Shown: positions 29,349 through 59,900 of the stretch, piece after piece
Numbering within the stretch: the first letter of the stretch is position 1
Layout: each line of letters starts with the position of its first letter
Assembly: GCF_965363235.1 (NCBI RefSeq)
Contig: NC_134842.1
Location: forward strand, 35,176,505 to 35,240,504
From: Mytilus galloprovincialis
Lineage: Eukaryota > Mollusca > Bivalvia > Mytilida > Mytilidae
Length of the DNA stretch: 64,000 bases
Direction: 5' to 3'
Notes under the pieces: model-generated
Told to the model about the DNA's origin: nothing
The model's input: only the letters and a program-made list of their open reading frames with translations
The model's database searches: none
Translations under genes and position numbers: made by a program

Positions 29349-32300
29349 ATGTTGCGCATTAGTTTGACCGTCATTCTAGTAATTGTACTATTGGAGAAAT
29401 CTTACGGTAAATATTTAGTACTATTATACACACATTTTCAAAATACATAATTGTTTTTTCTTCTTAAATTGTTCAATAAATTAAAAAAATAATCTACAAA
29501 TAATACATTTTAATTACTGATGTCGGGTTTTTTCTTTTCTTTCTAATATTTTTTCAAACAAAAAGAAAGTTTTTTTTAATATTTTCTGAATTAAATCAAG
29601 GAGTCTGTAAAAAAAAAACTTAATTATTTCAGAGGTTTTGTAAAGTTCCTAGTCAATATTTAGGGATTATTTGAAAGTCACTTATCAGTTCAGTGATTAT
29701 ATGTACTTTTTGAAAACTCAGGAAATTTATAAATTCACGGTTACATATGTATACTAGATGTTTATATTAATAAAAAGTAAAACCATAGGTGCTTTGAGGA
29801 CAGGATCCTGTTATGAGCCCCCATAGTCGCTCATAACAGGATCCTGTTCTCAAGTACCTACGAGTAAAACGCCTGAGGTGAATAAAATGCACGTGCGGAT
29901 CCAGGAATTAATGTTTAAGGGTGCATAAGAATTACTAGTTATAAGACCATATATTTGACAAAATGTCTTAAATTTCTTTTGTATGGGGGATAAGGTGTCG
30001 GATTTGGCACAGTCTGAATTCGCGCCTGCAATAGCTCTGGAAGGGGTTAACTGTTTGCTTGTCTTTAAAGTATGGCAACTAACGCTAAAGCAAAACTTAG
30101 ATCCATGCATTTGTATGCATTAATTTATTTATTAAGCAAGACGAGTTTTTAATGCCACTAAGTTAGGATAAAGATGATATTAACATAGTTCAGTCTCTAT
30201 AAAAAAGAAGATGTGGTATTATTGCCAATGAGACAACTCTCTACCAGAGATCAAATGACACAAAAATCAACAGCTATAAGTTACCGTAGGGCCTTCAACA
30301 ATGAGCAAAGCCTTTACCGCATAGTCAGCTATAATAAATCTTGAAATCCCAAATGTAAAACATTATATACAATTCAAACAACCAAACTAACGGCCTAATT
30401 AATGTAAAAAACAAATATGTAACTCAGCAACAAATGACAACTGACTGAATTATAGGCTACTGGCTTAGGACAGGCACATACATACATATTGTGGAGGGTT
30501 AAAAATGTGAGAGGGATCCCAACCCTCCCGGCCTAACACGGGACACAGGTGTAACTGTTACAGTACAAAATAAGAACGAACTATAAAAATCAGATGAAAA
30601 AAGGATAAACTAATCAGATGGATACAAATTGAAATACATAACATAAACACGTAGACGTGACCCTATACTTGTACATACCAACAGCAACACGACAAAAAGT
30701 ACAGATTTGAGAGTTCTCGCAGTTACTGGCAGCTAGTTCAAAGCCAATAACAACTAATATAAAAAATCACGCATCTACTAAATTTGTAAAGTAAATCACA
30801 GATTCATTTAATAATATATCCCTGTCATGCATAATTGCATTTCGAAAATTTCTTGTCAATGGCGCTCGAAAGAAATTTATAAAATAACAACAACGAAAAA
30901 CGCATAAATAGTCTTTCCAATTCCCAATTATTCCTTTTTTTTTTTTATCGTTATCTTGTATATAACATTTGTTTACAGGCAGAGAACAATATGGAGATTA
31001 CTGTGAAAAGTTTGGTCTAGATGAAATACAACCTCCCATATTTAATGGAGAAAGGTTTTGTTTGAGTGATAGAGAATACAAGTACTGTAAAAGCTACAAC
31101 TGTCCAACTCCAGATTGTTCTAATCCATTAAGGCCTGCTACTGGAGGATGTCGGTATTGTAAAGGTAATATATAGATTGGACAATTCCATTTAGGATCTT
31201 AGAACGACGGTGGATGTTTTTTTCTGAGGGTATCAAGTCATTTTCCTATCTGGCATTGATGGGCTCATAAGATGAGAGATACCCACTTTTTTTGTCTGTG
31301 GGATCTTTTTTAAATATGAAAACATTAGGGGTTGATGGCACAATGTGGCATCTAAGGGATTATAATTTGCATGAAAATTTTCTCAAGTGGGCCTTTGACA
31401 AGGTAACCATTCCGGCATTCCCTCTGTCCAGAAATAAATGGAATGTCCCATTAAATTATAGTTCTCTGCAAGTTAACGTGAAGGTGTGTACAAAGGTAGT
31501 GCATGTAGTGTACAATATTTGTTAGTGTAAGACGTAAAATTTCGCTGCGAGTTTAAGGCACATTGAAGTAAAGTCGATTAATTTTGGCCATAATTTGTAT
31601 CTGCCAAAACAACACGCTTGTCATCACCTATAATGTATGTTTGATAAAAATATGCCAATGTTTATATTTCCAAAAAACATACATGACTTTTTTTTATTTA
31701 GAGTATTTTGAACAACAAAGATTCTTGGAAATTTCTATCATTTATTCGATCGACTTCACTTTTATTAATGAAAAAAAAAAACATTCATTGAGTTTTGTGG
31801 ATTCATTATTATTCGTGGGATACCAATTTTCGTGGATTTCGTTGGTACAGGTGAACCACAAATTTTTATTTTCAAAGAGGTACACATTTGCTATTGGGTT
31901 ATATTCAGACTATGACAAAACCTAAAAAGAAAATATCCACGAAGGTACAAGATTTTCTGATTCCACGAAAATTGTTACCCACAAAAATAAATGAATCCAC
32001 CGTTTCATATTTCTAATTAATAAAACATTTTTTTTTTTTTCATTTTTTTTTTATCTTTTATTTTTTTTAATTTTATTTTTTTATCTTTTTTTTTTTCAAT
32101 AGTCAGGATTTTACATACCCCAATAAACTACCATCTTACAATGGTATCAAGGGGTGAATACAGAAAAATAATGCAATATACAACATGTATCTCGAACTAA
32201 CTCATAAAACATACATCTTTTCAATTTGATAACAGTTGCGTTAAAGTCATTAGTTCTGAAGAAACGCATTGTTTTTGTAAAAATGATACCTTAAAAACGG

Positions 32301-33183
32301 TCACATCAAAATCGTGTTAAATATAGCCTGATTAAAATCTAGTAACATACAGACATATATATGCGAGGGTCTAAATCGGTCTAAATCGGATTTACAAAAC
32401 AGAAAATAACGGACAAATTGGAGGACAATGAAAATAAAGAATGAACGAATAGATGCTAAATGAATATAAAATAATGGGTTGCTAAAATATAAAGAATAGA
32501 GAATAATGAGCCAAAAAAATAAATAATAAAGAATAGAAAAAAGGCATAAAATGATAAGAAATATTATAGCGCGTATATTATAGCTCTTCATCTTTTATAT
32601 ATGCTTTGGATTTCAAATATTTTGGCCACGAGCATCACTGAAGAGACATGTATTGTCGAAATGCGCATCTGGTGCAACAAAATTGGTACCGTTGATTTTA
32701 TTATAGAAGGAAGACATACCTTTTGAGTCTGTTTATGTTGTGCACACATCGTTGACAATATAATTGATTTTGCAAGTCATACAACTGTAAGGTTTAGCTA
32801 GCCTAGCTATAAAACCAGGTTTAATCCACCATTTGTTTATATAAGGAAATAAAGTCTGTATCAAGCCAAGAATATGACAGTTGTTATCCATTCATTTGAT
32901 GTGTTTGAGCTTTATTTTTATTTTGCCATTTCCAAAAGGACTTTCCATTTAGAATTTTCCTATTTCGGTATTTTTTTGTTATTTTACTATCTCCCACCAA
33001 TGATATGCTTTTTTCATTGCAGATTATTGTAGCTATGGTGGAACAATGTACCCTATTGGTGCCGGATTTTCAATCAATTGTTTGGATGGATCAAACAGGT
33101 GTGCGTGTAGTACAAACAATCGGATTCTTAAAACACGTATTGGAACTAGTCCAAGAAGAATGTGCTTTAAAAAACTGACATGA
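29349..33183 (+). CDS. Secreted von Willebrand factor C-type cysteine-rich protein (134 aa)
   Basis: Three coding exons: 29349-29406, 30979-31164 and 33023-33183, all GT-AG with consistent phases (405 nt). Exon 1 encodes a signal peptide, MLRISLTVILVIVLLEKSYG, with a hydrophobic core. Exon 2 has seven cysteines and ends NCPTPDCSNPLRPATGGC followed by RYC, the typical end of a VWC domain. Exon 3 has five cysteines and starts DYCSYGGTMYPIGAGF, the typical start of a second VWC-like module. The protein is probably extracellular; VWC modules often bind TGF-beta-family ligands or build matrix. No transmembrane segment. A possible poly(A) signal ATTAAA is at 33331-33336. Specific function not recognised. 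Confidence 0.82.
30201..30800 (+). repeat. Dispersed repeat R1, longest copy
   Basis: Same start as the copy at 10351 (A-run then GAAGATGTGGTATTATTGCC) but continues about 200 bp further, through ATACCAACAGCAACACGAC and TTCTCGCAGTTACTGGCAG. Lies in intron 1 of the VWC gene. Confidence 0.8.
31796..32001. mobile_element. MITE family M2, intact copy
   Basis: Inverted ends GTGGATTCATTATTATTCGT and (complement) GTGGATTCATTTATTTTTGT. About 205 bp, in intron 2 of the VWC gene. Other copies: 8511-8953 (split) and 38349-38533. Confidence 0.75.
32632..32675 (+). ncRNA. Hammerhead ribozyme motif HH1
   Basis: All type-I hammerhead parts are in order. Stem I 5' arm GCATCA; core CTGAAGA (matches CUGANGA); stem II GACA/TGTC with loop TGTAT; GAAA; short self-complementary stem III ATGCGCAT; cleavage-site C at 32669; stem I 3' arm TGGTGC. 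Compared with HH2 and HH3 the arms differ but still pair. It is followed by a conserved AAATTGGTACC tail. Lies in intron 2 of the VWC gene. No core base departs from the consensus, so it may be active. Confidence 0.75.
32750..32995 (-). repeat. Dispersed repeat R3, reverse copy
   Basis: The complement matches the repeats at 36930-37080 and 37850-38070. Shared blocks (given on the + strand here) are TAGCTATAAAACCAGGTTTA, TATGACAGTTGTTATCCATT and CATTTGATGTGTTTGAGC. Confidence 0.7.
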
Positions 33184-33489
33184 TGTGTTTGGAAACTATA
33201 GTCTCTCACTTTCCTCCTTCAAAACTTAAGATACGTAGATCACTCACTCATTAATTTTGTAATTTTCGTCACAAATATGTATAATATTACTTTAGATTAA
33301 TGGACATTTGTAGCAATCATTATAAACTATATTAAAAATCAGTGTTAAAACGAGTTGTTTGCATGAAACGGGTTATGTTCTTCTAATACCTTTTGTGATG
33401 GTATGATACTAAACCTCTAACGGAAAGGATTATGCTCGATTTTGCATACGATGAAGAGAGAATTGGCTTTCAATCAGTTCAATTGGAGC

Positions 33490-33800
33490 TGGCGTGTCAG
33501 TAACTGGTAGTAGTCCTAAAAATTGTTTATGTATGTGTCATTGTCGTTTTGCTTAGTTTCTTTTCCTACTACTTATTTGAACATCAGAATCGGACTTCTT
33601 TTGAACTATGTGTATTGCGGTGTGTTTGTTTATTCTGTATTGGCTAGAGATATAGGGGGAGGGTTGAGATATAAAATAAACATGTGTAACCCCAAGTGAA
33701 GAGCCTATGGCCTTTGTTGGTCTTTTCTTAAAATTTAGTTCATTTATTTGTTTCGGAGTTTAGTGTCTATAGTATCCTGCTAGTCCTAGCATTGATCGTT
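33490..33800 (-). repeat. Diverged dispersed repeat (R1/R2-like)
   Basis: Contains TTGGCTAGAGATATAGGGGG, GAGGGTTGAGATATAAAATA and AGCCTATGGCCTTTGTTGG, which I recognise as the extended form of the mussel R2-type repeat. It follows the VWC gene. Confidence 0.5.
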
Positions 33801-33876
33801 AATCCTTTTTTGTCAATTGTAATGGAAATTATTTCCTTGCTGTAATCTTCTTTAGGTCTGGTCATGTCTTTTCAGA

Positions 33877-34240
33877 GCCAATAATGTGTCCGAGACACAT
33901 ACTCTCACTTTGTCCAAGTTTGCACTTTGTAGAACGCACGGATAATCCTGCATGTTTTATTTTGTCAAGTACAGATGATCCAGATGTTCGCTCAATGTAT
34001 GCTGAAGATAATTTTATTATCAAAGTAGACTACGGCAGTGCTATATCAATTCAAAACACGGTCCATGAGACGCACAAAGGTTGCTGGTGATGTCTTCATT
34101 TCAAACGGCATTCTTCGAACTAATATAGACCATATGGTGTCACAAATGCTGATTTTTCTTTGGTGACCCAGACAGTCGGATATGATAAAAGCCCTTTGGT
34201 ACAAGTAAGTCGAACAGACTCAGATATTTTAGTTGTCTTT
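33877..34240 (+). pseudogene. Decayed gene piece, family unknown
   Basis: Starts right after a good acceptor (tcttttcag). The first frame reads protein-like (CPSLHFVERTDNPACFIL, then AEDNFIIKVDYGSAISIQ), followed by further coding-like stretches in other frames (for example GDVFISNGILRTNID and DFSLVTQTVGYDKSPLVQ). The reading frame is broken about twice, and the hAT-like element at 34241 cuts off its end. No family was recognised, so function cannot be stated. It is unlike its AT-rich surroundings. Confidence 0.45.
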
Positions 34241-34891
34241 CAGGGGCGTAGCTAGGTATTCATTCAACTGTAGGCACAAATCGGCAGGGGGTCTGGGGCC
34301 GCCCATGGCCCCCAGCCGGTCCAGGGCAGAGCCCTGGTAGGGGGTTCAGGGAGGCGAAGCCCCCCCCGACGAAAAACGGATTTCAGCGTTTTGGCTGCAA
34401 AATTTTATGCACAAAAATATTAAATTTTCTGGTTATTTAATCAGGATAATTATAGTATACATGATGTAAAGTTCGAACAATTATCAATAATTTACCATAA
34501 CATCTGAATGGTGAATTAAATAACGTAGTACAATTGGAAAATCCAATATTAAAAAAAAAATATTTACAATAAGTACATGTGTCTAAGTTGAGGTTCATTC
34601 AAGTTTTTGTTGATAGAATTGAAATGATCTGAACCGAAGTTTTAGTTTATAGTTTCTTTATAAGGTACACACATAAAAAAAATTTCAATTCTATCCAATA
34701 ATCCATTCACTAAGGACGAGAGACTAGTGTACGCATCAGTGATATTCGATAATTAGAGTTGTGACAACTTCACTGGAGTTCATCTACATATTATAACGTT
34801 GTTTATTATTTTTTTTTAATAAAACAAAATATTTGTGAAAAAATTATGTGTAGGCACGTGCCTAAAGTGCCTAACGGCAGCTACGCCCCTG
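34241..34891. mobile_element. hAT-like non-autonomous DNA transposon, 651 bp
   Basis: Terminal inverted repeats CAGGGGCGTAGCT and (complement) CAGGGGCGTAGCTGC, typical of hAT elements. The borders carry a near-duplicate GTCTTTC / GTCTTTTC, an 8-bp-type target duplication with one length difference. Interior: a GC-rich stretch at 34270-34370 and otherwise AT-rich, with no transposase. Inserted at the edge of the decayed gene piece. Confidence 0.75.
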
Positions 34892-34984
34892 TCTTTTCAA
34901 GTACATAGCTAATAGACATGTTCACCATAAGCCGATACCGAAACCAAAAATTGTAGTGAGGTAAATGATAAATGTTCATAATGT

Positions 34985-35290
34985 TTATTAACTCAACCAT
35001 TTAACTCCATTGTATGGTTTGAAATTTGAATACACTAGATTTTGTATTACTTCAAAAGTAAGAATTATTCGAAATGCTAAGGATTTTCTTATCCCAGGCA
35101 TATTTCTTAAGCCGTATTTGGTACAATTGTTTGGAATTATGGTTCCTCGATGCTCTTCAACTTTGTACTTGTTTGGCTTTATAATATTTTGATATGAGCG
35201 TCATTGATGAGTCTTATGTAGACGAAACGCGCGTCTGGCGTACTAAATTATAATCCTGGTACCTTTGATAACTCTATACTATTTTGGATT
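34985..35290 (+). repeat. Hammerhead-bearing repeat unit (retrozyme or Penelope-linked type), copy 1
   Basis: Unit containing ATGCTAAGGATTTTCTTATC, CTTCAACTTTGTACTTGTTT and the HH2 motif, ending CCTGGTACCTTTGATAACT. A shorter relative with the same tail and HH3 follows at about 35370-35462. Hammerheads occur in circular-RNA retrozymes and Penelope-like elements of bivalves (established), so this is probably a fragment of such an element. Confidence 0.6.
35198..35241 (+). ncRNA. Hammerhead ribozyme motif HH2
   Basis: Stem I GCGTCA with TGGCGT; core TTGATGA; stem II GTCT/AGAC with loop TATGT; GAAA; self-complementary stem III ACGCGCGT; cleavage C at 35235. The first core base is T where consensus needs C, so this copy is probably inactive, but its overall fold is kept. 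Confidence 0.75.
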
Positions 35291-35386
35291 TGTACCAAAC
35301 TTGGACAGAAGCTTGTTTATGATCAGATACTAGTATCGAGACGGAAATTTTGGTCTGCTTTGTCTTTCTAACCATTTTTTATCTGA

Positions 35387-35430
35387 GCGTCACTGATGAG
35401 TTTTATGTAGACGAAATGAGCGTCTGGCAT
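35387..35430 (+). ncRNA. Hammerhead ribozyme motif HH3
   Basis: Stem I GCGTCA with TGGCAT (one mismatch); perfect core CTGATGA; stem II GTTT/AGAC with loop TATGT; GAAA; stem III ATGAGCGT (imperfect); cleavage C at 35424. It shares the CCTGGTACCTTTGAT tail with HH2, 190 bp upstream. Confidence 0.72.
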
Positions 35431-35469
35431 ATCAAAATATAAGCCTGGTACCTTTGATGATTATGTACT

Positions 35470-36800
35470 TCCATTCATCAATTCACACGAATCTATCAAA
35501 AAAGCAAACTTCAATTCAACCATTATTGAATACAGTAACACAAGTAATATACAATTTGAGATGCAATTCAGTTATGATGTACATAATTCGTGAAGCAGGT
35601 ATCGTCATAGGGTAAGAGTTGCACATCGTTCTATAATAGGTGCAATATCGTTCCGACTATGTCTTTAAAGAGAATATATTATTTTATAAATTTTTATTCG
35701 TCTTATGGAATGATACATTAACTCTTCTTGCACGAATCTTTTGATCGAAACGTTTGCGTTGATCGCGGATTTTTGCATTTTAATTTTATAGTTGCCTTAC
35801 ATTTTATAATGATGCAATATGATATTCCGATGGATATATGGTATCGCCAAGTAAGTAACAATCACGAGGAAACGGAAATATCTCGTGTTGACCGATCGCA
35901 CCCATCTATGTGCAAGTCATTGTGTCATTGTTATGACCCAGTAAATCAGTTTTAATGTATTTTATTTTCTTTCCTATGTATATTATGACTTGCGTATTTA
36001 TACAGTGTATATGACAATGCCCACTATAAAACAATACCGGTTTTTAGGTCGGGCGATTTATTCTTTGGGAGGTTCCATCAATAGATCCAAATACCTCTTT
36101 TATTCTGGCCAATCACCCTTCATAGATTCCCAAGTTCTTCGGCTGAAGGCCATATTATCATTAATCTGAATGATTGATGAAAACTATAGATAACTTCATG
36201 AATAAAAGTTTTGCTAACATCAAACATCAAAGCCATTTGTTCAAATGTAGGGTAACTGCTTAACCAAATCAAATCCATTAAAAGTTTATTTTGATAGCTT
36301 AAACGTACCAGTCCTTTATTCTACTATCTTACTCTCTCATTTTTTTATGTATTTTATTAAATGTGTATCCACATCTTAACTGAATATAACTTGCTTTAGG
36401 ATATTTAATATTTAATGCTTGTAAATTTCACTTTGCTTTTGTGATAGATTCATGTTAATTGTTGAATTGAAGTAATACTCTATCTAGTGTATTAAAATTT
36501 CACACAATATAATGGACTTACATGGTTGCATTTATTAAACATTATAAAAATTTACCATTTATCTCACTACTATTTTTGGTTTGGGTATCGGTTTTGGTAT
36601 CGGCTTATGGTGAACATGTCTAATACCATGAATCGGATAATTGTCTGACAAATGTATATCATTAAGTTTTCTATAGTTAATGCATATTCTGATTGCATTG
36701 TCTGACTAAGTTATTAAGACCATGGGGGCACTCCATGCACTCTTTAATAGTTTGACAACACCATTCTCAAAAGAGACTAAAATGAACAAATAAGTCAATC
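35470..36800. other. Intergenic, nothing recognised
   Basis: No exon or recognised repeat. A pair of segments (34920-34945 and 36590-36620) with inverted GGTATCGGCTTATGGTGAAC suggests that a larger inverted-repeat element of about 1.7 kb spans 34915-36620. This was not traced in full. Confidence 0.4.
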
Positions 36801-36929
36801 TAATATTCCATAGGAAACTATGAAATGAACCACACAAATCTCACCAAAGATGTGTGCTCTGGAATATCAAACTTTTACCAATGTTTCTGCACCAGATGCT
36901 CCAATAATGGCACCCATTGTGCATCTCTA

Positions 36930-37080
36930 AAAAAAGTAAAATACCAAAAAATACCGGACTCTATAAGGAAAATTCAAAATGGAAAGTTTCAAAATCAAAC
37001 ACTTAAACACATCAAATGAATGGAAAACAACTGTCAGATATAGAAAATGGTGAATTGAACCTAGAAATAAGTTACATTTG
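36930..37080 (+). repeat. Dispersed repeat R3, copy 2
   Basis: Contains AAGGAAAATTCAAAATGGAA, ACACATCAAATGAATGGAAA and ACAACTGTCAGATATAGAAA, matching 37850-38070 and the complement of 32750-32995. Confidence 0.65.
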
Positions 37081-37849
37081 GTGATATCAGAAATGAGGAG
37101 AAGAAGATTGGATTTTATGGTAATGAGAGAAACATTTTCATTGTCATTTGAGACAACCTAATTCTGCTGATGTCTGTAAAAATTTCTAGAAGAAAGAACT
37201 TAAACTTAAACAATAACAGCCATTGGTTCCAAAACTTCCTTTTAAGCAGCTATTCTCTATCAAGGAAATCATGCTTTCATATCAACTGGGAGATATACCA
37301 TAGAAGCTAGTTTGCAGATATTGCTGGCTTGATGCTACATAGGAATGGAAAGTTCACAGCAGCAGCAGTCACCAAGTTTTGATGAATTATTGATTTAGAG
37401 GTAAAAACAAAATAGAAAGACTATGTTTTCACATATATTTCAAATTACATAGTTTAACAGATAACATTAACCAGAATATAAGTCACAATGTCAGATCCCA
37501 CTATAATGTGTCTGTATTCCTTGAACCACTAAATAAATGTCAAAGTCATAGTTTGACATAAAATCAAAAGGTCTTCTTCACAATACACATGTGTGCTAAG
37601 TTTCAAGTTGATATGATATCAAAGTAAAGTACCTTTACCAAAAAATTTAACATGAAAATGTTCTGATTTCACTTTATTATATTTCTATGTTCAGTGAACC
37701 ATGAAATAAGACTCAAAGTTCTGTTCGCATAAATATATAAATGCAGATAAAAACATGCATACATGTTAATTGTTGTCAATTTCAGGCACAAGTTATTGAA
37801 CTTCAGAAAAACCTAATACTTCAATCTTCAAAAAAAATATGTAAAACCT

Positions 37850-38070
37850 AAAAAACAGCCTCTGTAACAATTATGACAAATTCAATATTGGAAAAAGATA
37901 AAATAACAAAAATACCAAAACTCTAAGAAAAATTCAAAACTAAATGGCAAAAGCTCATACACATCAAACGAATGGATAACAACTGTCATATTCCTGGCTG
38001 GGTACAGCTATTTTCTTATGTAAAAAATGGTGCATTAAACCTGGTTTTATAGCTAGCCTTATGAACTTTT
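37850..38070 (+). repeat. Dispersed repeat R3, copy 3
   Basis: Contains ATACACATCAAACGAATGGA, ACTGTCATATTCCTGGCTGG and CCTGGTTTTATAGCTAGCC. The clearest copy of the family in the window. Confidence 0.7.
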
Positions 38071-50989: not shown

Positions 50990-53900
50990 ATGGCATTTAT
51001 GTTTAGTCAGAGATCAGAGAGCAGTCTCTCTGTCGCAACAAATGTGTCAAACAATTCAAAAACAGGTCCATACTTGGAGGGAAATTTAAAACTCATTGAC
51101 ACTTTGTAAGTATAATTTTAGGATGCATAATGTTAGATTTTATTAAATTAAGTACAAAATCCTATCAGACTTGTTATGCCTTTTCAAAACATACACAATG
51201 AGCGAATACCTTGTCAATCTATAAATAAAATTAGATGTCACAACTACAGTCTATAGTCGCCGTCACGTAAAATTGGCACCATGTTTTTTGTCAAAATTTT
51301 CTTAAATATCGACCGCGTTTACTGAAGATCATGTTTTTCAATTAGCGGAATCAAATATCATTCCAAAAATCAACTACTGTCCTACCTTTTATTGTGTTTG
51401 CACTGTATAATCCTGACCTTCACATAATCCAAGATTAATTTGTATGGTGGAATCCGACATTGTTATTACCGGAAGTGTTGCCGTGGAGTTCCTTACCTTA
51501 CCTTACCGCTGAATCTTCTTCCGTCCTTCAGGACAACCTCCAAAGGAGTAGTAGTAATAATCAACCTCCACCATCAAGAAATAAACAGTTGTATGTACAC
51601 AATATATACAGTTTTTCTTTTATTTTGTACACAAAATTCCACTCACACACGATTCAATGTTTATCTTCTAGTCTTAATAGGTGTGAGTAGAAATCCTTTT
51701 CACCGTAGTTTTTACTGGCGGCTTTGTCTTATCGTACAGTATAGTGTGGAGTGACCCACGCTTACTATGCTGTTATAATATTCGTTTATTTTCGGGTTTG
51801 GTATAGCAGTATAGTGTGGTGGAACCCACGCTTACTAAATATCTTCATACTTTTTGGATGGTTTACATCACAGCTGTTATAATTTTAATTTAACTTTCTT
51901 TTTCTCTTTGTGTTGAATTATCGTTCTGGCTCTAATGGAATGAAGGGCAAAACACAGTTTTCGAGATATAAGTTCACAGTTCTGCTCACCTTTCTTATTT
52001 AAAATTATATCTGTTTGAAGTTCGTTAATTTTCGAGCAGTCCAGAATTAATTGTAATTTGGAGTCTGTATTGATGTTGTGAAACGATATTGTTGTTTCCT
52101 TTATCAGCAGGTCGTCTAGTTGTTTAATGAACGGCTGACGTATATTTTCCAAAATTTTACATTTAAGTAGCAGATGTTCTATATCTTCGTTGTCTTGATC
52201 ACATAGCTTACACGTCGGCGATTCATGCTTGGTAAAACTTGCACGTTTAGCCTGTGTCATGTATGTACCAGTGACCATTTTAAGTTTAATTCCTATTGAT
52301 AATGCCCCTTTTGATGGATTGTTGTCATTTTCCAAATCAATGATTGGATGGCAACTTCTCGGTAAAAAAGTATCACAGTTAAGATGAATCAGTGAGGAAT
52401 AGAATGTACAATCATGAGTTATTCTTTGAACCCAGTATGAATCCGTCTTTTTTTGTATCAATTTCTTCCATTCATATTTACTTGGTGGATTATCCAAGAA
52501 TTGAAAAATATCACTAAATCCATATTTATATAAAAGTTTTTTGGTAATAACATACCAGCTGCTACTGCTGTCTAATTCAATATGTAGTTGTCTATATGCA
52601 AGTTGTTTCTCCACAGATTTATCATCCTGTCTGCATATATTGTTGAACAGGGTTAGACATTTTGTGTCAATTGATGCTTCAATTGGAAGTACGCCCGATA
52701 TGATGTAAATAGCTGGATCTGGGGTGTTTGGAGGAAGCGATAAGACTTTTTTCAGTAGTGATTTTTGAAACTTCTCTAATTTAGTCATGTTTGATGGACC
52801 TGGTTGTAGTATTTCTAAACCATAAGTGAGAACTGGTTGAATGTATGTTTTGTAGATAGATATTGATGTTACTGGGTCCAGCCCATTGGTTCCATGAAAT
52901 CCAGCCGAAAGCAGGCTATATGCAGTGCGACGTGCTTTTGTTGTGTTTTGTTCAACATGAAGTGTTTCTGATCTCATTCTTGATGTTGATCGAATTATAC
53001 CTAAATGTGATGAACTTGTAACATTCGGCATTTCTTGATTGTTCAGGTTATAAACACAATTATGATTGGTAGCTTTTCTAGATTTGTTATCCACCTCTAT
53101 GATTACACTTTTTTGTGGTTGTAACGTGTAATGATGCAATTGACTGTATTGCAGAGCATGGTTGATTAAAATTTGTAAATCATAAGGGTTGTCGCTCAAG
53201 ACTGCGATATCATCTGCACATGCTACAGCATTAATATTGATGTGTCCGATCATACATCCTTGATTTGATGTTTCATATAGAGATAATAAGTCTTCAATAT
53301 ATAATTTATACAAGTCAGCACTCAATAGTCCCCCTTGTTTGACTCCTTGGTGTACTTTAAATTCTTTTGACAGTTGGTTTTTCCATTTGATGTTACAGCT
53401 TGTGTTCAAGTGAAGATCATCAATTAGTGACCAGGTTGTTGGGTCAATATCTAATAGAAACAGTTTTCTCATCAGCATATTTATAATGACAACATCAAAT
53501 GCTGATTTAGCATCTAGTAAGGCTATGTAAAATGAACTATTTTTGTCACTATATTGCCTGTACACTTCCTCAAATATAACCGCTGCATTTAAGGGCGATG
53601 TATTCGGGGTGAATCCTCTTTGTAATGGTGATTGTTTCTTCAATAAAACTGGTCTAAAATTAATTCTTGCAATATATTCCAAAATTTTACATAGTATAGG
53701 TAGTACTACAATTCCTCTGTAGTTTTTAGATTCATTTTTGTTGCCTTTATTCTTGAATATTGGAGAAAGTAGTCCTAATTTGATAATTTCAGGTATTAAT
53801 TTGTTTTGGAGTATGATATTGACTAAAATTAGCAGATAATCGGTGAAGTCATCTCCTGCATATAATATATGTTCAATTGATAATCCAAAAATATCTTCAG

Positions 53901-56900
53901 ATTTCCCAGTGTTAATTGCCTTAATGGCTTCTAAGAGTTCTGATCTTGATACAGATCTAGGCGGTACTTGATCGCATATAGTTTTTATTGCTTTATAGTC
54001 CATTTCACAGAGATCTTGATGTTTGCCATCGTAGGTTGAATTTGAAATAGGTTCAGCTAGGGTTTTAAAATGTTCATGCCAACCTTCAATTACTTCCTCA
54101 TGCTCATATTTGTTGTTTGCAACATGCAAGTCATTGATAAAGATGTTTTTATTGTTTCTTTGCTTCTTTACAAGCTGGTAGAACAGTCTCTTATCTTGGG
54201 TGTTCGCAGTTATTATTCTATCTCTTTCAACATGTTTACGCTTGTTTTCTTCTTTTCGTATTTCAGATCTGAAAACTCTTCTTGTTTCTTTTTTCCTTCT
54301 AACTGATGGATGATCAGGGTCATATGGTCTACCTTCATCTTTCCAAATTTTATATGCCGTTTTGTTTTGATGCAAACTGTCTTTTATTTGAGGATTCCAT
54401 ATTTTTAGCTTCAATTTGTTTTTCCCGTATGATTTTTGGGTACAACATGTCTTTGCTGATGCTGAAAGTATTTCCATTGTTTCTTCCACTCTATTTGTAA
54501 TTGAGTCTTCCTGAATATTAAGTTTTTCTAATAATACCGGAATTTGTTTATTGATGATATCACTATATCTTTCAGTATCTACTTTGTTCCATCTGATTCT
54601 TGATTGTATATTATTTTCTAAAGGGTCCTTTTTAGTAAGTTCACATGGAAGTATGACCTTGATTGGATAGTGATCAGATACATTGGATGGTATATCAACT
54701 AACCTTGTAGATTCGAGATTTCTAGAGTTGTTCACTTTGTATATGAAGCAGTCAATTTCAGACACTTCGACTCCTTTTACATTAATAAACGTTGGACCTT
54801 TTAAATCTATTTTCATATTGCATTCTTCAATGAATTTATTTAATTTACGTGCTCTTCTTGAATTATTTGTTTTGGATATATCTTCATTGAAGTCGCCTCC
54901 TATAATAACATCATGGGTTGTATCATATTTCTGGATAAGTTCAAATAATTGGTCGATACACTCGCTATATTCATCATATTTGTCATTATCTGCCTTTGTT
55001 GGTAAATAAGCTGAGACAATTAGCACTGGTTTTTTTATTGATAACTCAATGCATTGAATTCTGTTATTGCCATCGTCTAAAGGTTTTACATATTGATCAA
55101 TGGTTCTATCCCATATAATAGCTACTCCTCCATATCCTCTGTGAGATCTAATAAATAAGTCACATGTGCTACTGTCTGAGTCAACAGCTTTTCCTTTGCC
55201 GCAAAATTGAGTGTGTATTTCGTCTAACAAATAAAGTTCATGATCAAATAGCCAGTGTTCTTGGAGCAATAAAATATCCATTTTGTTTTTAAAATTTTCC
55301 ATGAAAGGGGAAATTGTCTTTGCATTTTTACAGTTAAAAGATAAAATTTGAAGGTTCTTTTGTGGTGAACTGGCCTCATCATGTGTTGCACAAATTATAG
55401 TTGGTTTGGTCTTACCCCTAAAAAATGGTTCTGTTGGACTGGAAAGTTAGGGTTGTTTTGGATATAATTAGAGGCAACTGGATAACCTTGTCTCAGCATG
55501 CCATGTTGAAGAGGATTGTATTGAAGATCATTGATATTTGGTGTTATATGAGCAGCTGGATTCATATTATGTACACTGTATCTTGACTGATTTGTCACAA
55601 TAGGAACCTTATCACTGTAGAATAATGGTTGTCCAAAGGTAGGTGGTGGTGGTATATGGTTTGGAGTCTCAACCCTTCTAGGTTGTTGAGATACTTGCGG
55701 TTGGTCATTATTTTGTCTTGTTGTAGGAGGAGGTTGTGTCGTTAATTTTGCTGTGGTGTTTGTTGTTGTATTGTGGGTCATATATGATCCCAGAGTCGTG
55801 TTGTTTCCCACTTTTGTTCTCTCCTTATAGGTTGATGGTTCATGACCTTGAGGGTCATTGTTAATGTTGTTAGGTGGACTGCCAGAGCTCTCATTGAATT
55901 GGTTGATTATCTTATCAAACTGAGTGTCCATTTGCTGTAATATAAATACTGAAACTTTTTCATGTAATTTTGTGACAGCTTGATCAATGTGCTTGTTAGC
56001 AGAGCTTTGTTGGTAAGAGTTGCAGTTGTGAGTCTGCTGTTGTTGAGTATCATTGTTGTCAACATTGTGAGTGTTTACATCACATTTTTTTTGGAGAATT
56101 TTGTTTGATTTTTCAAGTTCATTGATTCTCATTTCCAGTTTGCTGACATATGACTGTAACCAGACTCTTTCATTTTGCATTTCTTCATTTATTTTTTCTC
56201 TTATTTTGAGTTCTTCTTCCTTTTTCTTAAGTTTCTGTTCTCTTTGTCTTATTTCACTCATTTTAATTTCTTTTGTTTTCTTTGGCATGTCTATTTCAGA
56301 TTCAGATGGTTGAGAATTGTGGTTTTCAGCGATGACATGGATATGTTCTGTTGGTACGTTTTGGATGGTACTGCTTAGAATAGTTTTAGTTGGATTAACT
56401 GAGGATGAATAAGGCTCTTTAATTTGAGTGTTTTGATCTTTATCTAGGGTCTCAATCCTGCTATTATTGCTTTCCTTTGATATATCAATGTCAATTTCAC
56501 AGCTTGAGCATATGTATTCATGTCCATCGTACGATGTACAAGAGATGTGGCATGGTTGAGTGCAGGATGAACATCGCACAACCTGTGCATCTATGATTTT
56601 GTTACAGATATTACAGACAGCATGTAATTCCTCATCTAGCAGTGCTTGTAATCCATTTTGACAATTATGACTCTTAATTGACTGAGTAGATGAATAGGTT
56701 GATTCTATAAGTGTATTTTTAATTGCTTTCACCGGATTCAATGATTGTGTGGTAACATGAGGGTCAGATATGCAAAGTTTGCATGTATAATACTCATTAT
56801 CATTTAATTTTTCAGCTGCTTCAATTTCAGTGTCAGATAATTTGATACATTTATAGTGTACCCAGTGGTGTCCCTTGTCACAGTATATGGCTCGTGATTG

Positions 56901-59900
56901 CACATTTCTGTTACATTTGCTACATTGCGCCTCATCAGTATAATTTAACGGTCTGTGCATTGTATTATTATCTTGGGGTGCCAGATCATGTGTTAATTGA
57001 CTAGTCAGCTTATGCAGTTCTTCTTCAAGTTTCTCATTTAGTCGTTTGAGATCTACTTTGTCTCCATTAAGGATCACTTCCTGTATCACTTTATGTATTT
57101 CAGGTATATCAGTTGTAATGAAGGTGTGGACATCTTTACCATTTACCAGAAACTTACAGTTTGTGTAATAAAGAGTGAGTGTATACTGATGTAGATTTTT
57201 ATTAAATACTTTGAAAACTTTACTGACTGTGAGTCCTCTTCTGTCTTGATCGTCTGTTGTTTTGGCGTATCTATTGTCTGGCATGATATTTTCGTAGTAG
57301 TGTGGGATGGCATTCTTTATTAATTCAAATGTAACTGCATCAACGGTCCCGACCAATCCACCTTTTGTTTGTTCATATGCAAAGTGCACTTCTCTTCTTG
57401 CAGCTAAAATTTTCTTGGAGATTGCTTTGTCAAGATTCAGATCAAAGGTTTTTTGTCTGTATTTTTCTTCAGAGGTCCTCGAGGCAGAGCGTGTTGATAA
57501 TATTTTATCCATTATACTTCTCTTTTACATATATATGTATATCTATTTAATGTTTAATATTATGTTATCTTGTGATATGGAGCTCTTTTAAAATGCAGTC
57601 TAAAATATATGGTACGAGTTAAAATAGTTCTATACTAATGCTAGCTGTAAAATATGCATTACACTAAAATCAGTTCTGATAAGATGTGATTAAAATTTAT
57701 GATCAGATCTTTAAAATGATAAAAGCAGTCTGTATCAAAACGTTGGTAAGATGTGGTTAAAAATTTTGAGATAGGCTTTTGGTTGATCACTGTTAGGAGC
57801 TAAAAGCTTATCGGTTTGTAGGCTCAATTATAAATTTCTGAAAAATGTCAGTATAGTGTGGGGAAATCCACGCTTACTGTTCAGGATAATGTTACTAAAA
57901 CCTTGCATGAGACTAGTATTTAAAATCTAAAATGACCTCTATCCTTTGGTTGTTTATCACTAGAAATACAATGTTAGTTTAGTGTGGAGAGATCCACGCT
58001 TACTTGTTCCAGAGAATGCAGCCAAACTTTATATGATGTCAGTATAGTGTGGTGTAATCCACGCTTACTGTTCAGGGTAATGTTACTAAAACCTTGGATG
58101 GGATTAGCAGTTAAAATCTAAAAAAAGACCTCTGTCCTTTGGTTGTTTATCACTAGAGATACAATGTTAGTGTAGTGTGGAGAGATCCACGCTTACTTGT
58201 TCCAGAGAATGCAGCGAAACTTTATATGATGTCAGTTTAGTGTGGTGGAATCTACACTTACTGTCTAGAAGAATGTAACCATGTGATTGTTAAAATCTAA
58301 AATAACCTTGGTCCTTCGTTCACTTTTAATACAGATAAAATGTGAGTTTAGTGTGGAGTAACCCACGCTTACTGTTTAGGAGAGAACATTTCCTGTTTTT
58401 CTTTTTCTTTTCATGTATAAAAGAGTGTAGTTTTAATAGTAAAGGGTTTCCAATTTAATACAGTTTAGTGTGGAGAAACCCACGCTTACAATTTACAGAT
58501 AAGATGTTCTCTGTTAAATCGTAGAATACTAATTTATATATCATACATAATTTAAAACATTTAATAATTAATCATCAAATTAATAAAAAAAATATTATAT
58601 GATAATTCCTCAAATTTTATTCAAGAAAATAAAATTATTTGGTATATACATATTTAAAATATATCTAATAATTCAACTGAAATTCTAATACAAATTGGGC
58701 TTGAACGGACTTCGGGGGCGAACATGTGAGGTGCGAACGTGTAGGGTGCGAAAGTATATTGGGCGCAAACGGACCTGATACCACCTGGGGTCATGTGGGG
58801 GAAACACATCATTAGACATTGTGACGTATAGGTATTTACTTTGTGACATCAAATCTGAGACTACTATAACACTATGTTATAGTAGTCTAAGATCAAAGGT
58901 TAACCATGATAAACCCTTTCCTCCATGGATTTTCTTTTTACATACTTGATTCGCATAGGATTTTTTCAGTGAAAAATAATCATCAGATTTAAAATATTAA
59001 TGCATTGCGAAAACAAATTTTTCATCAATGAAATTCCAGTCAGATGTTCTCATGAATATCCTTTTTATATTAGATACATTTTTTTTAAAGTCTGATGAAG
59101 TTTTATCCTAGATAATACGTTTCAACTGAGACACTACACAGGCGTCGAAAGGCGTCATTATGGAGTAAAGGGGGTGGCGTCAAAAGGCGTCATTACGGAG
59201 GAAAGGGTTAATTAAACATTCATGTAATTAGTAGCACCAATTATTGGAACATGTAAAATGTACAAATGAATGTGATGTAATGATATCATATGAGTGAGAT
59301 ATAATTTTAAATCTAGTATATGCCAAATAAGATATTTTTACCTGATGCATAATCCCGAAAAGAATTTGGGGGACAAACATTTGATATTTAGCATGTTTAT
59401 GGAAATGGCAGGAGGATTTCATTGATTTTCATTTGAAGATATACCTGCTACTTTTTAGCTCACCTGGTCCGTCGTCGTCGTCGTCCGTCGTCGTCGTCCG
59501 TCGTCGTCCGTCGTCCGTCGTCGTTAACTTTTACAAAAATCTTCTCCTCTGAAACTACTGGGCCAAATTAAACCAAACTTGGCCACAATCATCATTGGGG
59601 CATCTAGTTTAAAAAATGTGTGGCGTGACCCAGCCAACCAACCAAGATGGCCGCCATGGCTAAAAATAGAACATAGGGGTAAAATGCAGTTTTTGGCTTA
59701 TAACTCAAAAACCAAAGCATTTAGAGCAAATCTGACATGGGGTAAAATTGTTTATCAGGTCAAGATCTATCTGCCCTCAAATTTTCAGATGAATCCGACA
59801 ACCCGTTATTGGGTTGCTGCCCCTGAACTGGTAATTTTAGGTAATTTTTGCTGTTTTTGGCTATTATCTTGAATATTATTATAGATAGAGATAAACTGTA

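What the first reader, a model, noticed from the sequence alone, without database searches (positions are those of the whole stretch)
32632..35430. Three hammerhead self-cleaving ribozyme motifs within 2.8 kb
Seen directly: 44-nt motifs at 32632-32675, 35198-35241 and 35387-35430 all follow stem I / CUGANGA-type core / stem II / GAAA / short stem III / C / stem I. Stems differ between copies yet still pair (stem II GACA/TGTC against GTCT/AGAC; stem III palindromes ATGCGCAT and ACGCGCGT). The self-complementary stem III suggests a dimeric hammerhead, as in retrozymes. Established: hammerheads occur in bivalve retrozymes and Penelope-like elements. Inference: two sequence sub-families coexist here, one inside a host gene intron.
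Basis: partly seen in the sequence, partly recalled or inferred. Interest (0 to 1): 0.8.

Follow-up and report, generated by a model that had tools for sequence, protein, structure and literature searches.

The report
Three truncated retrozyme copies
The three self-cutting RNA motifs are broken-off ends of a known kind of mobile element, and its many copies elsewhere in this genome suggest that it is written into DNA from small RNA circles, starting at one fixed point just past the self-cutting motif.

Summary
A covariance model built only from copies elsewhere in the genome finds these three in the window (E 1e-13 to 1e-19); Rfam's model finds none above its cut-off. Copy 1 is intact in sequence, copy 2 has core C3 changed to U, copy 3 has lost stem III.

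They are solo, 5'-truncated pieces of two related tandem repeats of about 350 bp (families A and B). These fit the published mussel retrozymes (PMC7229834). With one hammerhead each, none should make an RNA circle alone.

Genome-wide, 78 of 82 sampled retrozyme ends stop about 34 (A) or 41 (B) nt after the cleavage site. Their 5' ends are scattered round the circle, there is no excess of target-site duplications, and 6 of 8 arrays have monomers more alike than any between arrays. An HHR-cleaved linear RNA could not be copied across that junction. Best reading: reverse transcription of a ligated RNA circle from a fixed internal start, as reported for a Penelope-like element (PMC11167929). A Penelope-like family here ends 45-52 and about 87 nt after its own hammerhead. 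The enzyme is inferred.

The parts
32577..32703 (+). Copy 1: family A retrozyme fragment, monomer positions A258 to A34 (position 1 = first base after the cleavage site), 127 bp
   Evidence: blastn 99.2% to a real 350-bp monomer of L046; 97-100% to tandem arrays
32632..32675 (+). Type I hammerhead of copy 1, core CUGAAGA, all 14 model pairs standard; cleavage expected after C32669
   Evidence: R1 65.2 bits; stems I and II in the minimum-energy fold
32670..32703 (+). 34-nt 3' tail of copy 1, ending at the family A 3' terminus
35068..35279 (+). Copy 2: family B fragment, B186 to B44 (usual family end is B41)
   Evidence: blastn 92.1% to a real 355-bp monomer of L016
35198..35241 (+). Hammerhead of copy 2; stems pair but core C3 is U (35204), so probably inactive; cleavage would be after C35235
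   Evidence: R1 72.2 bits; RF00163 28.8 bits, below cut-off 34
35236..35279 (+). 3' tail of copy 2
35346..35468 (+). Copy 3: older family B fragment, B279 to B44
   Evidence: blastn 80.5%
35387..35430 (+). Decayed hammerhead of copy 3: core CUGAUGA kept, stem III and one stem I pair broken; cleavage would be after C35424
   Evidence: R1 49.7 bits with four mispaired positions marked; RF00163 23.9 bits
35425..35468 (+). 3' tail of copy 3

Best explanation
The three motifs are dead, 5'-truncated insertions of a short non-autonomous retroelement (retrozyme) whose full unit is a ~350-bp tandem repeat with one type I hammerhead per unit. Proposed cycle: a genomic array with at least two hammerheads is transcribed; the hammerheads cut it into units; a host ligase closes a unit into a circle (these steps are published for mussels, not tested here). 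A reverse transcriptase then starts at a fixed internal point 34 nt (A) or about 41 nt (B) 3' of the ligated cleavage junction, primed at a nick or break in target DNA, and runs round the circle until it falls off. This leaves a constant 3' end, a 5' end anywhere on the circle, and anything from a fragment (the window copies) to a concatemer, with no target-site duplication and often a loss of a few target bases. SHOWN here: fixed 3' end, scattered 5' ends, copies running across the cleavage junction, array-specific homogeneity in 6 of 8 arrays, no excess of TSDs. INFERRED: the circle as template, target priming, and a Penelope-like enzyme as the source of reverse transcriptase.
For: Ends: 78 of 82 de-duplicated ends fall in the preset bands A +31-39 or B +38-52, modes A34 and B41. 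In a sample chosen with a mid-monomer query that holds neither hammerhead nor tail, 19 of 20 loci end at B39-46. At the ends, match to the monomer drops from 0.95 at A33 to 0.33 at A35 and from 0.94 at B39 to 0.43 at B42, while internal monomers stay at 0.88 or more. 5' starts: no departure from uniform round the circle (KS p 0.47, n 78), 1 of 78 within 5 nt of the cleavage junction. So a cleaved linear unit, which begins at +1 and ends at the C before it, cannot be the template. One 28-hammerhead array has 27 units of exactly 350 bp, 23 identical, 5 substitutions in all; within-array identity exceeds the highest between-array identity in 6 of 8 family A arrays. 0 of 78 left flanks is shared with another insertion that has a different right flank, as copying of a linear array with its upstream flank would give. 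TSD test: shared words of 6+ in 4 of 78 against 6.4 by shuffling; 9 readable empty sites show losses of 1-10 bp (7) or 2 extra bases (2). Penelope parallel: PAc reverse transcriptase starts internally, 111-118 nt into an ORF whose hammerhead cut is at 26 (PMC11167929); in this genome a GIY-YIG/RT family ends +45-52 in 16 copies and about +87 in three read loci after its own hammerhead cut. The stretch just 3' of the start site (B41-120) is the best conserved between A and B (0.80-0.95) and folds into hairpins with double changes in 4 of 21 pairs.
Against: 4 of 82 ends lie elsewhere (L002 +108, L003 +33, L019 +160, L084 +12). One array (L067) is as mixed inside as between arrays and L046 only ties, which a single circle does not explain. 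Arrays of 28 and at least 37 units are far longer than the 1-4 units of the sampled loci, so some may have grown after insertion. Family A has a 5' hot spot at A258-259, 4 of 21. Samples were picked by similarity, so uniform 5' ends are only approximate. The 16 near-end Penelope copies were chosen because their match ended there. That family sits in (TA)n, retrozymes do not, and it does not share the retrozyme tail; no enzyme is shown to act on a retrozyme. Published text speaks of TSDs, when present, longer than 4 bp, against the result here.
Confidence: 0.74

Rival explanations
1. Uncut multimeric transcripts of genomic arrays are the template: the reverse transcriptase starts internally at the same point on a linear RNA, as reported in vitro for the Penelope-like element PAc, and the hammerhead plays no part.
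For: PAc hammerhead mutants keep insertion activity in vitro (PMC11167929). Mixed arrays such as L067 and L046 fit copying of a mixed source array.
Against: 0 of 78 insertions carries a 5' flank shared with a copy that has a different right flank, though reading off the end of a linear source array should do so sometimes. 23 of 27 units identical in one array fits one circle better. The search for shared flanks covered only the sampled loci.
Confidence: 0.15
2. An ordinary SINE-like element: linear transcripts that end at the tail are copied from their 3' end, and arrays are later tandem duplications.
For: Constant 3' end and 5' truncation are SINE and LINE hallmarks.
Against: 38 of 78 copies are longer than one unit plus tail with scattered 5' ends; no tRNA-like head in 5 loci scanned; no excess of TSDs; 1 of 78 starts near +1 where a full-length transcript would begin. 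The 3' flanks listed show no common A-tail (by eye).
Confidence: 0.06
3. DNA route: extrachromosomal circles cut from satellite arrays re-insert, or a rolling-circle DNA transposon carries the repeat.
For: Tandem arrays, no TSD, concatemers.
Against: DNA circles should open anywhere, yet 78 of 82 ends share one 3' site; rolling-circle DNA transposons have a fixed 5' end (recalled), here 5' ends are scattered.
Confidence: 0.04

Closest known systems
Mytilus galloprovincialis non-LTR retrozymes (Cervera and de la Pena 2020, PMC7229834)
   Same: [quoted passage not shown] here 350 and 355 bp, families A and B
   Different: Published sequences could not be compared (supplement not opened), and no call names the species here. 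The fixed 3' end, 5' truncation and empty sites are not in the sections read (13, 14, 17). They mention TSDs; none in excess here.
Penelope-like elements (Poseidon of Anolis, PMC11167929; GIY-YIG elements of this genome)
   Same: Hammerhead a few tens of nt before the 3' end, internal start of reverse transcription, tandem copies, no homology needed between RNA start and target
   Different: Penelope-like elements code for RT and GIY-YIG; retrozyme units have no long frame (85 and 79 aa at most). The family read here ends in (TA)n and has two 3' ends.
Plant LTR retrozymes (PMC4918200, listing only; features as quoted in PMC7229834 and PMC7761336)
   Same: Hammerhead-made circular RNA, no proteins
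   Different: Plant ones have LTRs, PBS, PPT, type III hammerheads and 4-bp TSDs; LTR, PBS and PPT were not searched for here by a dedicated test

Membership tests
Metazoan non-LTR retrozyme | Type I hammerhead | tested here: met
   29 of 74 scored genome candidates pass RF00163's cut-off; window copies match model R1 but not Rfam's cut-off
Metazoan non-LTR retrozyme | Short repeat of about 150-450 bp in tandem copies | tested here: met
   350- and 355-bp units in arrays genome-wide. The window copies themselves are solo fragments
Metazoan non-LTR retrozyme | GC below 50% and no long reading frame | tested here: met
   GC 0.36 and 0.386; longest stop-to-stop 85 and 79 aa
Metazoan non-LTR retrozyme | Expressed as circular RNA through self-cleavage | not testable with these tools
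   Published for M. galloprovincialis; no RNA data here
Metazoan non-LTR retrozyme | Target-site duplications longer than 4 bp, when present | tested here: not met
   4 of 78 share a 6-base word against 6.4 by shuffling, 0 share 8. The source calls TSDs optional ('when present'), so this does not exclude membership
Penelope-like element | Frame with RT and GIY-YIG | tested here: not met
   No long frame in retrozyme units; so it may work like a Penelope-like element but is not one
Penelope-like element | Internal start of reverse transcription at a fixed distance past the hammerhead | tested here: met
   As a genomic signature only: 3' ends at +34 and +41
SINE | tRNA-derived promoter | tested here: not met
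   ARAGORN finds no tRNA in L016, L046, L026, L067, L091; other Pol III promoters not tested

The most novel reading that the evidence does not exclude
Animal retrozymes are mobilised by Penelope-type enzymes that copy hammerhead-made RNA circles: the enzyme binds the conserved hairpin block just 3' of the start site (B41-120), opens reverse transcription at a fixed point 34-41 nt past the ribozyme junction on broken target DNA, and rolls round the circle, so that fragments, single copies and satellite-like arrays are all products of one reaction that stops at different times.
Probability: 0.45. Interest if true: 0.72.

Novelty: new member of a known kind. Interest (0 to 1): 0.5.

Why it matters
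The review PMC7761336 says that metazoan retrozymes show no motif that would tell which retrotransposon moves them, and PMC7229834 left open how the circle is primed. A fixed start point tied to the ribozyme junction gives a direct, testable signature of the template (a joined RNA), of the start site, and of a likely partner enzyme. It would also explain how a tandem repeat that looks like satellite DNA can be born in one insertion.

Tried and rejected
1) Shared 3' tail between retrozymes and a Penelope-like element. The element in L070 carries a retrozyme-like hammerhead and 41-nt tail in both inverted arms, which looked like tail sharing. Of 60 matches to that 3' region, only the locus's own two arms and one other place (C2:47245753) cover the retrozyme-like part; rejected as a rule, kept as an oddity.

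2) The window's LINE as partner: its 3' region was read by eye and shows no retrozyme tail; no alignment was run.

3) Target-site duplications: none in excess.

4) Rfam alone as arbiter: misses copy 1, though blastn and R1 are unequivocal.

5) Stability of the fold as evidence: no stretch folds better than its shuffles.

6) A/T preference at the insertion point: first two bases of the right flank 0.76 and 0.87 A/T against 0.68 in the window; weak and untested.

7) In the covariation count of the hairpin block, the number of doubly changed pairs (4) is not above shuffles (mean 4.1, 486 of 500 as high); cells with double changes are (38 against 13.8, 0 of 500). Most of this is the A/B split.

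Rows dropped before counts: 102 rows from 68 loci and 21 from 20 loci gave 82 after removing matches under 88% identity, matches cut by a locus end, and duplicates.
Full report
WHAT WAS CHECKED. The window is G000:C5:35176505-35240504 of a 1.385-Gb genome in 331 contigs. All three motifs are at the stated places: model R1, built from 25 copies outside the window, finds them at E 1.1e-19, 1.5e-17 and 9.7e-13, with the one other match up to E 10 at E 2.8. Rfam finds nothing over its gathering scores in the window and only copies 2 and 3 below RF00163's score in 30000-38000.

STATE OF EACH COPY. Copy 1 has every model pair and the core. Copy 2 pairs but has U at core position C3 (35204); in PAc a C3 change to G abolished cleavage (PMC11167929), and that C3 is essential in general is recalled. 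Among hammerhead-like instances in the loci, 10 of 202 carry this change (38 distinct sequences; overlapping loci counted more than once). Copy 3 has a broken stem III and one broken stem I pair. Only copy 1's predicted fold keeps stems I and II, and no stretch is more stable than its shuffles.

WHAT THEY ARE. blastn with real monomers places copy 1 at A258 to A34 (99.2%, 127 bp), copy 2 at B186 to B44 (92.1%) and copy 3 at B279 to B44 (80.5%), counting from the first base after the cleavage site. Family A is a 350-bp and family B a 355-bp unit in these references. Copy 1's query finds 145 matches, many in arrays with period near 350; copy 2's finds 40. Only the best candidates are scored by that tool, so copy numbers are lower bounds.

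FIXED 3' END. Three independent window fragments stop at the same homologous place, which prompted a wider look. Of 82 ends kept after filtering (102 + 21 rows), 78 end in preset bands (A +31-39, B +38-52; modes A34 in 10 of 21 and B41 in 24 of 57). The four others are L002, L003, L019 and L084. Because the first loci were found with window copies that themselves stop there, 20 further loci were taken with a query from the middle of the monomer, free of hammerhead and tail: 19 of 20 end at B39-46, one (L084) at B12. An anchored count shows the drop from full match to background within two to three bases, while internal monomers run on (21 A and 54 B ends).

5' ENDS, TARGETS AND ARRAYS. 5' starts do not depart from uniform round the circle (KS p 0.47, n 78) and one of 78 lies within 5 nt of the junction. 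Family A has a cluster at A258-259 (4 of 21; simulated p 0.002 for the number of near-coincident pairs), found after the fact. Target duplications are not in excess. Of 78 joined flanks, 13 gave hits across the junction in the sequences held and 9 could be read: L014 -2, L026 -1, L032 -1, L035 -3, L040 -5, L055 -3 or -4, L065 -10, L027 +2, L083 +2 bases. No left flank is shared by two insertions with different right flanks; the one pair sharing a left flank exactly at the junction, in L015, shares both flanks and is a local duplication, and L026 and L055 lie in the same repeat family. A 28-hammerhead array holds 27 units of exactly 350 bp, 23 identical. Within-array identity beats the best between-array identity in 6 of 8 A arrays, ties in L046 and fails in L067. 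At least 37 units lie in a row on C1.

ARGUMENT. The hammerhead-cleaved unit starts at +1 and ends at the C before it. Copies that run from +34 or +41 backwards through the junction cannot come from that linear unit; they need a joined RNA. A closed circle explains scattered 5' ends, concatemers, uniform arrays and lack of upstream flank in one step. Uncut multimers remain a rival, and mixed or very long arrays need something more, such as template change or later growth.

LINK TO PENELOPE-LIKE ELEMENTS. In PAc, reverse transcription starts inside the RNA, 111-118 nt into the ORF with the hammerhead cut at 26, and a 30-40-bp genomic tail corresponds to two start sites (parts 1 and 2 of 4 read). 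In this genome GIY-YIG gives 147 matches among 150 scored of 1001 candidates, several in open frames of 780-911 aa. L069 has GIY-YIG above and RVT_1 just below Pfam's cut-offs. The L070 family ends, in 16 copies chosen for that class, at +45 to +52 after its GAAAGC/GC-type hammerhead cut (the AT run blurs the exact base), and at +87 in L070, L111 and L112; L110 gives +81, L069 +70, L073 +93 to the start of the TA run. The spacing is alike, the targets differ: this family lies in (TA)n and, L070 and one other place apart, has no retrozyme tail. So the enzyme is an inference by analogy.

CONSERVED BLOCK. Between A and B the windows of B41-120 are 0.80-0.95 identical, against 0.45-0.80 for the other windows, hammerhead included. 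The block folds into a hairpin stack and a UUCG-capped hairpin, 97.2% of cells paired, 4 of 21 pairs doubly changed; doubly changed cells exceed all 500 shuffles, the number of such pairs does not. In PAc the first 172 nt of the ORF, reaching past the start site, are needed in the RNA; a similar role here is a guess.

NOVELTY. The elements are of a published kind. Paper searches (listings of open-licence PMC only) and the sections or passages read (PMC7229834 sections 13, 14, 17; PMC7761336 section 9 and passages; passages of PMC10886601, PMC8490949, PMC11722881) show the circle-template idea and Penelope-like elements as candidates, but no fixed 3' end. Supplements and subscription papers, among them Cervera 2014 and Lunse 2017 (not held), were not seen, so this is absence in those searches only.

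Noticed in passing
window 51877-57512, - strand: LINE-type element with two long open frames: 1141 aa with RT and endonuclease matches, and 705 aa with a PHD finger.
   Followed up: partly
L070 (C11:45820500-45825000): Penelope-like element whose two inverted arms both end with a retrozyme-like hammerhead and 41-nt tail; isolated among 60 matches apart from one other place.
   Followed up: partly
L114/L115 (C5:5330000-5340900): 28-hammerhead array with 23 of 27 units identical; all five substitutions are at a G of the RNA-sense strand.
   Followed up: no
   Followed up: no
family A position 258-259 (window 32577; L022, L040, L046): Four of 21 family A insertions start at the same 5' position, more than expected by chance (p 0.002, after the fact).
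   Followed up: partly
window 33025-33174, + strand: Cys-rich exon-like stretch after a plausible splice acceptor, no Pfam match.
   Followed up: partly
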